Source: Halorussus ruber (GTDB lineage Archaea > Halobacteriota > Halobacteria > Halobacteriales > Haladaptataceae). From it: 64,000 nucleotides of DNA. Within the stretch, counting starts at the first letter, position 1; each line of letters starts with the position of its first letter. The position numbers were made by a program, and so were the translations under genes. Location of the stretch: NCBI RefSeq assembly GCF_004765785.1, contig NZ_SBIT01000001.1, positions 124,001 to 188,000 on the forward strand, given 5' to 3'. Shown here in pieces: positions 2,223 to 52,114 of the stretch. The notes beneath the pieces were generated by a model. It was given only the letters and a program-made list of their open reading frames with translations, made no database searches and was not told the origin of the DNA.

Positions 2223-2338
2223 TGAAGCCCCCGCCCGCTCGCGGTCGCTGAGCGACATATCCACGGCCCTCAGCAACGCCCGCCGTGGATAGTGGTCGCT
2301 CAGACGACCAAAGTGAACGCGACCGCGCGGCCCCTTCA
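2223..2338 (+). repeat. Family-1 structured repeat, copy A
   Basis: Bounded by TGAAG and CTTCA. Inside, CTGAGCGAC pairs with GTCGCTCAG and ATCCACGG pairs with CCGTGGAT, giving a stacked hairpin with conserved ATAT and ATAG joints. The outer helix CGCGGTCGC/GCGACCGCG is imperfect here compared with the other copies. It lies 122 bases upstream of the NurA-like gene and points towards it. Confidence 0.85.
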
Positions 2339-14716: not shown

Positions 14717-15067
14717 ACCGGAGAATCGAATCGCGGGGGAATCAGCCTTCGGCTTTGGGCCGGATTCGAGTGGCTGTCACCGGGGACTGCACGCGCTCGG
14801 TGTCACAGCCACCGGGAAGCGCCAGGCCGACCAACCGCCAGCAGGCGCTCATGGATACACCCGACCGTCTGGGTGGATGAAGGGGCCGCCCGGTCGCGGG
14901 TCGGAGACCCATGGTCGTCTCAGCGACCACTATCGCGGACCGGGCTGTGCGGAGAGGTCCGCGATATGTCGCTGAGCGACCGCGACCGGGCGGGGGCTTC
15001 AGGAAACGTTCATCGCTACCGATTCTGCGGTTTGCACTCGTGGTCGCGCCAAGAAGGGGAGGAGAGG
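14717..15067. other. Intergenic region carrying family-1 copy B
   Basis: Apart from the structured repeat (14878-15001), the stretch 14770-14870 holds short inverted elements (GCTGTCACCGG...CACAGCCACCGG, GGCGCTT...AGGCGCT). No coding frame is credible. Confidence 0.6.
14878..15001 (-). repeat. Family-1 structured repeat, copy B
   Basis: Read on the minus strand it runs from TGAAGCCCCCG to GGCCCCTTCA. CTCAGCGAC pairs with GTCGCTGAG, ATCGCGGACC pairs with GGTCCGCGAT, and the outer CCGCCCGGTCGCG pairs with CGCGACCGGGCGG. All three helices are perfect. The arm sequences differ from the other copies while the pairing is kept. It lies upstream of the 14342-14716 gene and has its direction. Confidence 0.88.
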
Positions 15068-15523: not shown

Positions 15524-15978
15524 TCGGGTGTGAGTGGTGCGGGAGTAGTGGGTAAAGGTGGCGGTTCTTGGATGTGGTAGTGGTTTCTGAGTGTCAGTTA
15601 CGGTCCGTGTTGTTGGTGTTCTTCGACTCGACAGGAGACGCCGCCGATTCGATGGGACGACGGTTTCTGAAGCCCCCGGTCGCTCGCGGTCGCTGACCGA
15701 CATATCGGCGCAAACCGCGCGCCGATAGGGGTCGGTCAGACGACTACAGTGAACGCGAGCGACCGGCCCCTTCATCCCGCCCGTGTTCGATTCGGCCGAG
15801 CGTCTACTGTCGGCTGGTCGGCCGAGCGTTCGCTGGCGGTTGGTCAGTTAGCGCGACTCGGTGGCGTGGTTAGTCGGTGCATCTCGGTGGGTGGCCAACT
15901 CACACGAAACTCCAAGTCGAAGTCGTCGCGTACCGCGAAAGGTTGGGGTTTAACCGGCCTTCCGCGCAACGGGAGCAT
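15524..15978. other. Divergent intergenic region carrying family-1 copy C
   Basis: Lies between DUF2240 and the CARF-like regulator. It contains the structured repeat at 15668-15774. At 15785-15850 there is a direct repeat of GGTCGGCCGAGCG-like sequence. GGTTTAACC at about 15947-15955 lies about 27 bases before the ATG at 15979 and is a possible TATA region. No gene is seen. Confidence 0.6.
15668..15774 (+). repeat. Family-1 structured repeat, copy C
   Basis: TGAAGCCCCCGG to GGCCCCTTCA. Outer CCGGTCGCTCGCG pairs with CGCGAGCGACCGG (13 bp, perfect), CTGACCGAC pairs with GTCGGTCAG, and ATCGGCGC pairs with GCGCCGAT. It lies 204 bases upstream of the CARF-like regulator and points towards it. 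Confidence 0.88.
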
Positions 15979-23186: not shown

Positions 23187-23818
23187 ATCGGTCGGCGTCG
23201 GGTCGTCGCTTCAGTCTCGGCTTCGACTTTTTGTTTCGGCTGTGTTCGGTGGTTCGACGTTTTCGACGGTCTCGCTTCCCCGGTTTCGAGACGGCGACTC
23301 CCCGACTCGGCGCGCGCTGGTGCGCTCTCTCGTGAGCGCACCCTTCCGTGCGAGGTCTTCGTGAGCGTAGCGAACGACGGCTCGGACGCCGCGGGTTGTC
23401 TTCCGGTGGAGTCGGCCGCCGGAGGCGGCCGACGAGGTTGGGGAGGACGAGGCGCAGTCGCGGTACGGTAGACGCCTGTGCTCAAGCCTGAAGCTAGCGC
23501 TCTGCCGTTTCTACGGTGCTGTGCGGTCGCGGTCTTGGATTGCTGCAGTCGTCGCCCGCTTTCGGTGTACCTGCCTAACCAGTAGCCCGTTTCATTACTC
23601 AATTGATGTCTGTGCGTTCGGTGTCCGCACGTTCTGGGCCGGTAGACAATTACAAAACAAATTTAGAAGTGCATATTTAATTTCTTAACATACAATTAGT
23701 TGTCTTCACACGTTCTCCGGAAACACACCCCACAAACCGAACACAAATCTCAAACGAACTGTCCCGAGCGCGCACGAGAGCGAAAGTTGATTAACCGGGG
23801 GATTCCAAATCTGTCACA
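23187..23818. other. Long intergenic region between adk and DUF106
   Basis: A 632-base gap. It holds a family-2 repeat (23310-23498). After it come an AT-rich tract at 23640-23705 (CATATTTAATTTCTTAACAT) and a probable TATA region GTTGATTAACC at about 23785, near 30 bases before the DUF106 ATG. No coding frame is credible. Confidence 0.6.
23310..23498 (+). repeat. Family-2 intergenic repeat, copy 2d
   Basis: Begins with a 9-bp hairpin GGTGCGCTC/GAGCGCACC, followed by GAGGTTGGGGAGGACGAGG, GCAGTCGCGGTACGGTAGACGC, and the end CTCAAGCCTGAAGCTAGC. It lies 123 bases after adk in the same direction. This copy best shows the family's conserved 3' half. Confidence 0.65.
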
Positions 23819-24733: not shown

Positions 24734-24782
24734 ACTGCGCAATTTTCCTTTTCTTTTGGGTTTCTGTGGGTCGTCGGATTCC

Positions 24783-24811
24783 TCCCACGGCTGAAGCCGT
24801 GGGCTTCCTCC
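24783..24811. mobile_element. Lone IS200/IS605-type terminal hairpin
   Basis: CCCACGGCTgAAGCCGTGGG followed by CTTCC resembles the palindromic end found on haloarchaeal IS200/IS605/IS1341 (tnpB) elements. No tnpA or tnpB frame is nearby, so this is a remnant end or a stray palindrome. The family link is from memory. Confidence 0.45.
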
Positions 24812-24821
24812 TTGCATCTAT

Positions 24822-24897
24822 GTGAGTGCGGACCGCAGAATTGTCGTGATGAATGCTTCTCGAAACCCCCGCTCGGTCACGCTGTCTCGACGCAATC
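24822..24897 (+). repeat. Partial family-1 unit in tandem with copy D
   Basis: Offset by exactly 76 bases from the sequence starting at 24898: GTGAGTGCGGACCGCAGAATTG here corresponds to the start of the next unit with scattered changes, and CTTCTCGAAACCCCCGCTCGG corresponds to the TTTCCTGAAGCCCCCGCCCGG start of copy D. Only the 5' third of the element is present. Confidence 0.65.
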
Positions 24898-24936
24898 GTG
24901 AGCGCGAACCACGGAGTTGTCGTGGTGGACATTTCC

Positions 24937-25054
24937 TGAAGCCCCCGCCCGGTCGCGGTCGCTGGCCGACATATCTGCTCCTCTCAACACCGCCCGTCGC
25001 AGATAGGGGTCGGCCAGACGACCAAGCCTTCGGCGCGACCGGGCGGCCCCTTCA
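24937..25054 (+). repeat. Family-1 structured repeat, copy D
   Basis: TGAAGCCCCCG to GGCCCCTTCA. CCGCCCGGTCGCG pairs with CGCGACCGGGCGG, CTGGCCGAC pairs with GTCGGCCAG, and ATCTGC pairs with GCAGAT. It is directed towards cmk, 315 bases downstream. Confidence 0.88.
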
Positions 25055-25110: not shown

Positions 25111-25160
25111 GCGGGCCTCACGCCTCCCCAGCCTCCTCGTTCACTCCCGGTGGTCGTTCA
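25111..25160 (-). repeat. Family-2 intergenic repeat fragment, copy 2e
   Basis: On the minus strand it reads GAGTGAACGAGGAGGC then TGGGGAGGCGTGAGG, closely matching the core of copy 2b at about 2070-2100. Its direction is opposite to both flanking genes, an exception to the family's usual placing. Confidence 0.55.
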
Positions 25161-25340
25161 CTCGTCCACCGTCAGAGGCAAGACCTCGCACGACGATGGC
25201 AGCTCACGAGGAGCCGCCAGCGCGCGCCGAGTTTCTGTTTCGGCTGTGGCCCCGGTTCGTATTTGCTCTCCGTGCGCTCCGAGTTCCTCTCGAAGAGAGT
25301 TACGAGTTAACAGGGCGAACCCCCGGCGAAGTTCAAAACC

Positions 25341-31629: not shown

Positions 31630-31971
31630 AGAGGGTCGTTTCTCTGTGGCGTTAAGCAATATTTCTGTTTTCTAAAGGTATAAATACATGTCTTAAAGAA
31701 TTGTTTTGGTATCTATTTGTCCCTAATATCTGCCCTTCGGCTCGGCGCGCGCTGGCGCGGCGTTCATGCCGCGCCATCGGCGTGCGAGGGATGAGCATCG
31801 CAGGCCGGAGGCCGAGAAGCGCAAGAGGTTGGGGAGGTGTGAGGTTCGCGGTCGCGGGGCGGTACTGTGTGGTAGACGCCGAGGCTTCGGCGATAGCTAG
31901 CTACTCGGAAACTACAACTCGTACTGTAATGCCTCGAACAACAACCGACAGAAAAGACGTTTTAACTACCG
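31630..31971. other. Intergenic region with family-2 copy 2f
   Basis: AT-rich bases 31640-31725 precede the repeat at 31745-31901. No gene is seen between the GNAT gene and ilvD, which converge here. Confidence 0.6.
31745..31901 (+). repeat. Family-2 intergenic repeat, copy 2f
   Basis: Hairpin TGGCGCGGC/GCCGCGCCA (31753-31761 and 31768-31776) followed by GAGGTTGGGGAGGTGTGAGG, TTCGCGGTCGCGG, GGTAGACGCC and a GCTAGC end. It lies 3' of the GNAT gene and has the same direction. Confidence 0.62.
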
Positions 31972-51226: not shown

Positions 51227-52114
51227 ATGACCGTCAGCGTACTCGTTCCGTCATCCCTCGTCCGGGAGGCCGAAGACAAGCGCGAGGCGACTCGCAAAAT
51301 CGGCTACGTCGCCCGCGCGGCGACGGTGTTCCGGGCCGACCGCCTCGTGGTCTTTCCCGACCCCGACGGCGAACGGCGATGGGGTGGCGGGTTCGTAAGC
51401 ACCGTACTGGAGTACGCCGCGACGCCGCCCTACCTCCGAAAGGAGGTATTCGGCAAGCGGGACGAACTGGAGTTCGCGGGCGTCCTACCGCCGCTCCGCG
51501 CTCCGTCACTGACCGGCTCCGAATCCGAGGGTTCGGGGTCGTTAAGACAGGGAATCGTGACCGAGGTCGGACCTGAAGGGCGCGTTCGGGTCAATTGCGG
51601 ACTGCAACACCCGATTTCGCTCGTCGTGCCGCCAGAAATGGAGGTCGACGAGGGGAAGCGCGTAACCGTCAGGATCTCTTCGCGAAGTCCGGTCCGTGCG
51701 AAACTCGTAGACGAGCCCGTTTCGGGCTTGTCGGTGACGCGCATGGACCTTCCGGCGGCTCTCGACCGCGACGACGCGGGCGTTCGAATCGGAACGTCCC
51801 GCCACGGGGTCGAGTTGACGACCCGGCGGCTGACCGAACTGGTCGGCCGGACCGAGCGCGACGGTATGACCGTCGCGTTCGGTTCACCGGGTCGCGGCCT
51901 GCCGGAGATGCTCGACCTCCCCACGGACTCGCTGGCCGATACGTGGCCCGGCGACGGGGAGGACGAGGCGGACGCGGAGTCCGGAGTCGAACACGGCGCA
52001 CCCAGCCGGTTCGACCTCTGGCTAAACGCGGTTCCGAATCAAGGCAGCGAGGTCGTGCGAACCGAAGAAGCGATGTTCGCCGCACTCGGCTGCCTGAACC
52101 TCAAAGAGAAGTGA
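51227..52114 (+). CDS. SPOUT RNA methyltransferase (DUF171 family)
   Basis: A 295-residue putative rRNA methyltransferase of the SPOUT/C9orf114-like family that sits just before uL3 in many archaea. It starts MTVSVLVPSSLVREAEDKREATRKIGYVARAATVFRADRLVVFPD, has an inserted OB-like part (GIVTEVGPEGRVRVNCGLQHPISLVVP), and a C-terminal knot region with MTVAFGSPGRGLPEML and LWLNAVPNQGSEVVRTEEAMFAALGCLNL. The target base is not determined. The gene ends four bases before the uL3 ATG and heads the operon. Confidence 0.85.
   Translation: MTVSVLVPSSLVREAEDKREATRKIGYVARAATVFRADRLVVFPDPDGERRWGGGFVSTVLEYAATPPYLRKEVFGKRDELEFAGVLPPLRAPSLTGSESEGSGSLRQGIVTEVGPEGRVRVNCGLQHPISLVVPPEMEVDEGKRVTVRISSRSPVRAKLVDEPVSGLSVTRMDLPAALDRDDAGVRIGTSRHGVELTTRRLTELVGRTERDGMTVAFGSPGRGLPEMLDLPTDSLADTWPGDGEDEADAESGVEHGAPSRFDLWLNAVPNQGSEVVRTEEAMFAALGCLNLKEK

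What the first reader, a model, noticed from the sequence alone, without database searches (positions are those of the whole stretch)
2223..2338. Intergenic repeat family with compensatory base changes in its helices
Four full copies (2223-2338 plus, 14878-15001 minus, 15668-15774 plus, 24937-25054 plus) begin TGAAGCCCCCG and end GGCCCCTTCA. Each folds into nested helices. The middle helix pairs perfectly in every copy although its sequence differs: CTGAGCGAC/GTCGCTCAG, CTCAGCGAC/GTCGCTGAG, CTGACCGAC/GTCGGTCAG, CTGGCCGAC/GTCGGCCAG. The apical helix is different in every copy but always pairs and always starts ATAT and ends ATAG. The outer helix also covaries. Joints (CATAT, ATAG, AGACGAC) are conserved. 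This is how a selected RNA or DNA structure behaves, and I do not recognise it as a named family.
Basis: seen in the sequence. Interest (0 to 1): 0.85.

Follow-up and report, generated by a model that had tools for sequence, protein, structure and literature searches.

The report
Haloarchaeal interspersed DNA hairpin repeats
The four look-alike hairpins belong to a previously unnamed, order-wide family of about 110-130-base folded repeats scattered between genes of salt-loving archaea (some 250 in this genome); they keep their fold while their letters change, but the pattern of changes says the fold matters as DNA rather than as RNA.

Summary
Four copies lie at the stated places and fold as described. 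Covariation is very strong: 38 of 41 pairs, 684 double-change cells against 201 in shuffles. But wobble pairs are no commoner than A-C mismatches (28 vs 38, one position aside), whereas archaeal RNase P from the same order shows 153 G-U vs 7 A-C. Copies ignore gene orientation and never overlap genes. So this behaves as a DNA hairpin, not an RNA. Copies come and go: the copy-2 gap is -4 to 40 bp in 11 of 14 relatives and 323 bp here. They are mosaics of nested palindromic modules, and one Haloarcula copy shows quasi-palindrome correction, so part of the 'compensation' may be mutational. Best reading: a non-autonomous, proliferating palindromic repeat (REP- or SMR-like), spread by an unidentified activity. 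Y1 transposases are absent from six genomes with 33-111 copies, so the RAYT model fails. Nothing in Rfam matches; Haloquadratum SMR-A sequences could not be compared.

The parts
2223..2338 (+). copy 1 of the hairpin element
   Evidence: sequence and fold; CM score 137.6 bits
14878..15001 (-). copy 2, with a 13-nt hairpin (GGGTC/GACCC) in the 3' side arm
   Evidence: 126.5 bits
15668..15774 (+). copy 3, short apical helix
   Evidence: 121.3 bits
24937..25054 (+). copy 4
   Evidence: 130.5 bits
15002..15035 (-). conserved upstream flank of copy 2 (GCAAACCGCAGAATCGGTAGCGATGAACGTTTCC)
   Evidence: same motif precedes many other genomic copies
24906..24936 (+). conserved upstream flank of copy 4 (GAACCACGGAGTTGTCGTGGTGGACATTTCC)
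24831..24882 (+). decayed copy: upstream flank plus only the 5' arm of the element (5' stub), just upstream of copy 4
   Evidence: same kind of stub in other loci and species
14770..14812 (-). downstream inverted repeat (GTGGCTGTGACACCG..GGTGACAGCCAC) within the ~290 bp that relatives lack at the copy-2 site
15785..15850 (+). ~25-nt tandem repeats downstream of copy 3 (..GGTCGGCCGAGCGTTCGCTGGCGG..), typical of the family in this genome

Best explanation
A non-autonomous, dispersed DNA repeat whose working form is a folded single strand (or cruciform) rather than a transcript. About 107-131 nt fold into a rod: GAAG/CTTC or GAAAG/CTTTC closing helix, C-rich internal loop, 12-bp helix, side arm, 5-bp helix, bulged purine, 9-bp variable helix, asymmetric A(TATC)/(GATA)GGG joint, variable apical hairpin. 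The core is flanked by a short conserved upstream motif and TCCCACCC downstream, and multiplies as a unit of roughly 300 bp into intergenic DNA. New copies appear, are partly replaced by exchange of palindromic modules, and are lost by collapse of the hairpin to a 5' stub. The helices stay paired partly because replication template switching re-copies one arm from the other and probably partly because an unidentified protein needs the fold. Shown: fold, covariation, lack of an RNA-type wobble signature, intergenic location without strand preference, lineage-specific presence/absence, mosaic build. Inferred: that copies move rather than only being lost, the ssDNA intermediate, the trans-acting activity, the selection on the joints.
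For: Covariation: own-genome alignment 76 double-change cells vs 27.3 shuffled, score 0.271 vs 0.096, all slid controls at or below 0.043. Order-wide alignment of 105 distinct copies: 38/41 pairs, 684 vs 200.8 cells, score 0.433 vs 0.134. DNA not RNA: G-U 28 vs A-C 38 outside one pair; RNase P of the same order, 153 vs 7. No RNA-gene logic: 52 copies, none overlapping a predicted gene, neighbour arrangement equal to background (24/17/11 tandem/divergent/convergent, chi-square p 0.95) and no strand preference in tandem contexts (11 vs 13). Proliferation and turnover: 0 to >=144 copies per congeneric genome. Copy-2 gap is -4 to 40 bp in 11 of 14 relatives vs 323 bp here; copy-1 gap is 49 and 73 bp in G005 and G014 vs 470 bp here; a 5' stub stands at the copy-3 site in G015. 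Mosaic structure and nested hairpins. Hairpin collapse products in the own genome. Specificity: in 197 genomes sampled from the phylum, all six with hits belong to the window's order.
Against: No base-precise empty site or target duplication was found: relatives are too diverged (~80-86% in genes) and the intragenomic search gave none. No mobilising enzyme is identified. Gaps could also reflect deletion in relatives, although 11 of 14 agree. In Haloarcula plasmids the element sits at one conserved place ~490-620 bp upstream of an OB-fold (SOSS-B/RPA-like) gene, with invariant outer and 5' arms. That looks like a fixed functional site, not a free repeat. One position (pair 35-157) does show abundant G-U (44 of 105).
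Confidence: 0.62

Rival explanations
1. Structured non-coding RNA or RNA regulatory element present in many copies.
For: Deep, conserved secondary structure with compensatory changes and conserved unpaired joints.
Against: No excess of G-U over A-C (28 vs 38; RNase P control 153 vs 7). No consistent orientation to neighbouring genes. Both strands fold. No Rfam match. Hundreds of copies beside unrelated genes. No shared promoter was noticed upstream.
Confidence: 0.1
2. REP/BIME/REPIN-type elements spread by a single-strand Y1 (RAYT / IS200 TnpA) transposase.
For: High copy number, extragenic, imperfect hairpins with a bulge, inward-facing pairs around a spacer, mosaic combinations. Bacterial REP subfamilies also differ by alternative complementary stem residues (PMC3733652).
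Against: Y1_Tnp (PF01797) is undetectable in G011, G002, G001, G003, G016 and G010, which carry 89, 111, 60, 66, 43 and 33 copies. No GTAG/CGTC end tag. 107-131 nt rather than 20-40. The single-strand Y1 chemistry was not testable.
Confidence: 0.12
3. Selection is not needed: a neutral, GC-rich palindrome family whose arms are kept complementary only by quasi-palindrome template switching and gene conversion during replication.
For: L177 (Haloarcula plasmid) has the 3' arm rewritten to GATATGTCGC, the exact complement of GCGACATATC, while relatives keep GATAGGGGTCGC/GATAGGGGCCGC. Apical hairpins are swapped whole between otherwise near-identical plasmids. Double changes without wobble intermediates fit one-step rewriting. 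Mechanism documented in PMC8794818.
Against: 98 of 105 copies across many families keep the asymmetric joint and none in that set is fully symmetrised. The C-rich internal loop and the bulge also persist (72 of 105 keep AG[A/G]CGAC). Unopposed template switching would erase exactly these asymmetries.
Confidence: 0.28
4. Member of the haloarchaeal 'small mobile repeats' (SMR-A) described in Haloquadratum walsbyi, which insert into palindromes of PATE/IS605 elements.
For: About 110 bp, inverted ends, many copies, no transposase, mobilisation unexplained, insertion in or near palindromes (PMC3119063). Nested hairpins are common here, and an IS605-like end lies 95 bp upstream of the copy-4 flank (24776-24811, by resemblance).
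Against: The three SMR-A families share no sequence with each other and their sequences could not be obtained. Model R1 finds nothing in 97 kb of Haloquadratum plasmids. Most copies here have no PATE/IS605 end beside them.
Confidence: 0.25
5. A single-strand origin or single-strand promoter (Frpo-like) of conjugative or rolling-circle plasmids that has spread to chromosomes.
For: Fixed position and orientation upstream of an OB-fold (SSB/RPA-like) gene in more than ten Haloarcula plasmids, several typed MPF_T. The adjacent ~150 bp resembles an intergenic stretch of the small plasmids pNB101 (which encodes a Rep protein, PF07232) and pHLAJ5II.
Against: The shared stretch lies beside, not in, the element. 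Hundreds of chromosomal copies have no such neighbours. No phage record and only one IMG/VR contig carries it.
Confidence: 0.08

Closest known systems
SMR-A small mobile repeats of Haloquadratum walsbyi (HqIRS42, HqIRS43, HqIRS55)
   Same: ~110 bp, inverted ends, no coding capacity, many copies, haloarchaeal, mobilisation unknown, association with palindromes (PMC3119063)
   Different: No sequence relation shown; the element here spans the order, has a detailed conserved multi-helix fold, reaches >200 copies (extrapolated) and is not mainly found in PATE/IS605 elements
Bacterial REP / BIME / REPIN elements with RAYT transposases
   Same: Extragenic imperfect palindromes, high copy number, inverted pairs, mosaics, stem variants with compensating changes
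   Different: Three to four times longer, no GTAG/CGTC tag, no Y1 transposase in many carrier genomes, almost no G-U pairing
PATEs and IS200/IS605 near-terminal palindromes of haloarchaea
   Same: Hairpins near element ends; the GAAAGCCCC-hairpin look of some IS605 ends
   Different: Here the hairpin is the element; no tnpA/tnpB and no palindromes at two distant ends
Integron attC sites
   Same: Folded strand with conserved unpaired bases, sequence-variable but always paired arms, variable terminal structure
   Different: Comparison from memory only; no cassette arrays and different end motifs; integrase not looked for

Membership tests
REP/BIME (RAYT-mobilised) | 20-40 bp palindrome tagged GTAG or CGTC at one end | tested here: not met
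   107-131 nt rod with GAAG/GAAAG ends
REP/BIME (RAYT-mobilised) | associated Y1 tyrosine transposase in the genome | tested here: not met
   PF01797 absent in six congeneric genomes with 33-111 copies
REP/BIME (RAYT-mobilised) | extragenic, high copy, inverted pairs | tested here: met
   0 of 52 overlap predicted genes; inward pairs in G288 and G000
SMR-A small mobile repeats | about 110 bp with prominent inverted terminal repeats, no ORF | tested here: met
   107-131 nt; GAAAG..CTTTC / TGAAG..CTTCA
SMR-A small mobile repeats | preferential insertion into near-terminal palindromes of PATE/IS605 elements | tested here: inconclusive
   a few copies lie near IS605-like ends (24776-24811; L011), most do not, judged by eye
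SMR-A small mobile repeats | no target duplication | tested here: inconclusive
   no base-precise empty site obtained
SMR-A small mobile repeats | sequence relation to HqIRS42/43/55 | not testable with these tools
   their sequences are in supplements; 97 kb of Haloquadratum plasmids gave no hit
Structured RNA family | covarying helices | tested here: met
Structured RNA family | G-U pairs tolerated far above A-C mismatches | tested here: not met
   28 vs 38 against 153 vs 7 in RNase P
Structured RNA family | match to a curated Rfam family | tested here: not met
Structured RNA family | is transcribed | not testable with these tools
   no expression data
MITE of a known haloarchaeal transposon | terminal repeats shared with a transposase-bearing element | not tested
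   no full search for a parent transposon was made; the best inward pairs hold only repeats between them

The most novel reading that the evidence does not exclude
An order-wide class of structure-recognised DNA elements of archaea: an imperfect hairpin whose asymmetric joints are read by an unidentified haloarchaeal protein acting on folded single-stranded DNA, spreading without a Y1 transposase, with arms kept complementary by template switching. It would be a new kind of structure-dependent mobile or host site.
Probability: 0.3. Interest if true: 0.8.

Novelty: new variant of a known kind. Interest (0 to 1): 0.55.

Why it matters
It is an abundant (roughly 1 copy per 15-17 kb here), order-wide structured repeat of haloarchaea that Rfam does not list and that none of the papers found here describes. 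It warns that very strong covariation can belong to DNA, not RNA: the G-U versus A-C count, set against RNase P, separates the two cheaply and should be run on other 'candidate structured RNAs' in GC-rich genomes. It offers a natural system for measuring template switching in palindromes, and an entry point to an unknown activity that spreads or acts on hairpin DNA in archaea, an open question since the 'enigmatic' small mobile repeats of Haloquadratum.

Tried and rejected
Rfam scans of the window and ten homologous loci: nothing at these copies. Exact DNA pattern in named genome contigs: nothing. Phage records: no hit; one IMG/VR contig (not followed). RAYT/IS200 hypothesis tested by Y1_Tnp across the genus and rejected. 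Haloquadratum plasmids searched for SMR-A relatives by model, self-BLAST and palindrome scan: none. Empty-site search by joined flanks: only stubs, hairpin-collapse products and self-matches. A G087/G129 pair at 91% identity showed loss/gain of ~180 bp but not at base precision. A quadruplex/i-motif idea from the repeated C-tracts was dropped because several genera lack the downstream CCC tracts. An average A+T profile around copies shows G+C-rich downstream and A+T-rich upstream flanks but no sharp signal.

Full report
CHECK OF THE OBSERVATION. They fold much better than shuffled sequence as RNA (z -6.3 to -9.8) and as DNA (z -5.0 to -9.3), and the complementary strand, tried for copies 1 and 3, folds as well. 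A covariance model (R1) was built from 17 own-genome copies with the fold of copy 2 without its side arm. On that alignment 96.3% of cells pair; 17 of 42 pairs have double changes; 76 double-change cells stand against 27.3 in shuffles; and sliding the partner by 1-3 columns destroys the signal.

HOW BIG THE FAMILY IS. The model scores 146 matches at E <= 0.1 in the own genome, with only 150 candidates allowed. On two contigs (0.79 Mb) it finds 53, a few of them partial, so the genome holds roughly 250-300 (extrapolation). 17 of 18 congeneric genomes have it, from 1 to at least 144 copies, and one has none. In 293 genomes of the order 77 have a hit at E <= 1e-6, in 24 of 87 genera. In 197 genomes sampled over the phylum all six with hits belong to the same order. 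A generic GC-rich hairpin could raise scores, so sequences were read. The signature GAAAGCCC..CGGTCGCT..CGACATATC..GATAGGGGTCG..AGACGAC..CCCTTTC..AGTCC is recognisable in relatives from many families. Named plasmids place it in Halorussus, Haladaptatus and Haloarcula. Contig lengths and coordinates identify the g21 genomes as Haloarcula (G110 contig 3 = CP019156, G200 contig 5 = pNG500). The window's genus is inferred, not proven, to be Halorussus.

STRUCTURE OVER THE ORDER. With 105 distinct copies, 38 of 41 pairs show double changes, 684 cells against 200.8 shuffled, score 0.433 against 0.134, all slid controls at or below 0.057. That alignment was fitted to the model, which favours the structure, but the margins are large and the MAFFT alignment agrees.

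DNA OR RNA. In an RNA helix G-U is tolerated and A-C is not; in a DNA hairpin neither is favoured. Outside one position the element has 28 G-U and 38 A-C cells. RNase P RNA from genomes of the same order, aligned and folded here, has 153 G-U and 7 A-C. G-U is 2.0% of paired cells in the element against 8.2% in RNase P. One position, the first pair beyond the side-arm junction, has G-U in 44 of 105 copies and was set aside; with it the counts are 72 and 39, still nothing like RNase P. This is the main reason for preferring a DNA-level structure.

CONTEXT. A simple codon-usage gene finder on the two contigs gave 713 genes. Of 52 copies none overlaps a gene, though 77% of the sequence is coding. 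The neighbour arrangement (24 tandem, 17 divergent, 11 convergent) equals that of long intergenic regions (105/81/53; p 0.95), and in tandem contexts the element points with the genes 11 times and against them 13 times. A leader, riboswitch or terminator would not behave so. Upstream lies a conserved GAACCGCAGAAT..GTGATGAACGYYTC motif and downstream TCCCACCC and often ~25-nt tandem repeats. Copies also occur in inward-facing pairs, in another genus around a second repeat family.

TURNOVER. The region around copies 1-3 is syntenic across the genus. At the copy-2 site the intergenic gap is 323 bp here. It is -4 to 40 bp in eleven of fourteen relatives, 116 bp in G014, and 460 bp with its own copy in G008; the fourteenth comparison (G016) did not resolve the site. 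At the copy-1 site G005 and G014 have 49 and 73 bp against 470 bp here, while G006 and G013 have copies. At the copy-3 site copies of different sequence stand in the same place and orientation in G007, G016, G002 and G003, and G015 has only a 5' stub. Own-genome copies mostly end TGAAG..CTTCA while other species mostly have GAAAG..CTTTC, even at the shared site, which suggests replacement or conversion within a genome. Base-precise empty sites were not obtained, so gain by transposition is inferred from parsimony, not shown.

HOW THE ARMS STAY PAIRED. Copies are mosaics: outer arms of at least two types, several kinds of apical hairpin, extra hairpins nested in loops. In Haloarcula plasmids, where the element is a true orthologue at a fixed place, the outer and 5' arms hardly change. 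The apical hairpin is exchanged whole between plasmids that are otherwise near-identical, and one plasmid (L177) has had its 3' arm rewritten into the exact complement of the 5' arm. That is the footprint of template switching in a quasi-palindrome, known to mimic compensatory evolution (PMC8794818). Yet 98 of 105 copies keep the asymmetric ATAT/ATAG joint and 72 keep the bulged AG[A/G]CGAC, which template switching alone would erase. I therefore hold that mutation explains much of the covariation and selection on the joints part of it; the split is a judgement.

WHAT MOBILISES IT. The obvious candidate by analogy with bacterial REPs, a Y1 transposase, is undetectable in six congeneric genomes with 33 to 111 copies. 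The activity is unknown. The closest description found is the SMR-A repeats of Haloquadratum (PMC3119063), which match in size, ends and the lack of a known mobiliser, but whose sequences could not be compared.

A POSSIBLE CO-OPTED SITE. More than ten Haloarcula plasmids carry one copy, same orientation, ~490-620 bp upstream of a gene with weak OB-fold/RPA similarity. The next ~150 bp resemble an intergenic stretch of the small plasmids pNB101 and pHLAJ5II. A role in single-stranded DNA metabolism there is conceivable and testable, but rests on position only.

VERDICT. Observation confirmed and greatly extended; RNA reading not supported; selection plausible but not proven by covariation. A new, order-wide variant of the known kind 'interspersed palindromic repeat', with an unusual DNA-type covariation signature and an unidentified mobiliser.

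Noticed in passing
2004-2100, 25116-25228, 31744-31844 (also near 23309 and 321): A second dispersed intergenic repeat family (GGCGCGCGCTGG..CGCGCGAGGGACGA..GGGGAGGTGTGAGG) that often neighbours the hairpin element; seen also in another genus between inward-facing element pairs, there around an A+T-rich TTTATAAAT centre.
   Followed up: partly
own genome contigs C1 and C6, e.g. in the copies L124:8784-8960 and L142:15287-15465: A ~22-nt micro-hairpin (CGGAAGACAAACCGCGTCTTCCG) followed by a second variable hairpin is inserted again and again, mostly in loops or arms of the element, sometimes between short direct repeats such as CACCG (16 occurrences in 0.79 Mb).
   Followed up: partly
L176:5999-7761 (Haloarcula marismortui pNG500) and its orthologues: The element sits at a fixed place upstream of an OB-fold gene; the adjacent ~150 bp resembles an intergenic stretch of the small plasmids pNB101 and pHLAJ5II (possible origin-like sequence).
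   Followed up: partly
51573-51672: Strong Rfam hit to the L4-Archaeoglobi ribosomal protein leader (75 bits, gathering 34.5) in a haloarchaeon.
   Followed up: no
24776-24811: Hairpin CCTCCCACGGCTGAAGCCGTGGGCTTCCTCC resembling the end of an IS605/IS1341-type element, 95 bp upstream of the copy-4 flank.
   Followed up: no
L317:1097-1153: One IMG/VR contig (112,934 bp) carries the element core; its nature (virus, plasmid or host) was not examined.
   Followed up: no
G009 and G014 (congeneric genomes): Genomes with no copy and one copy of the element beside relatives with about 100: natural pair for finding the gene that spreads it.
   Followed up: no
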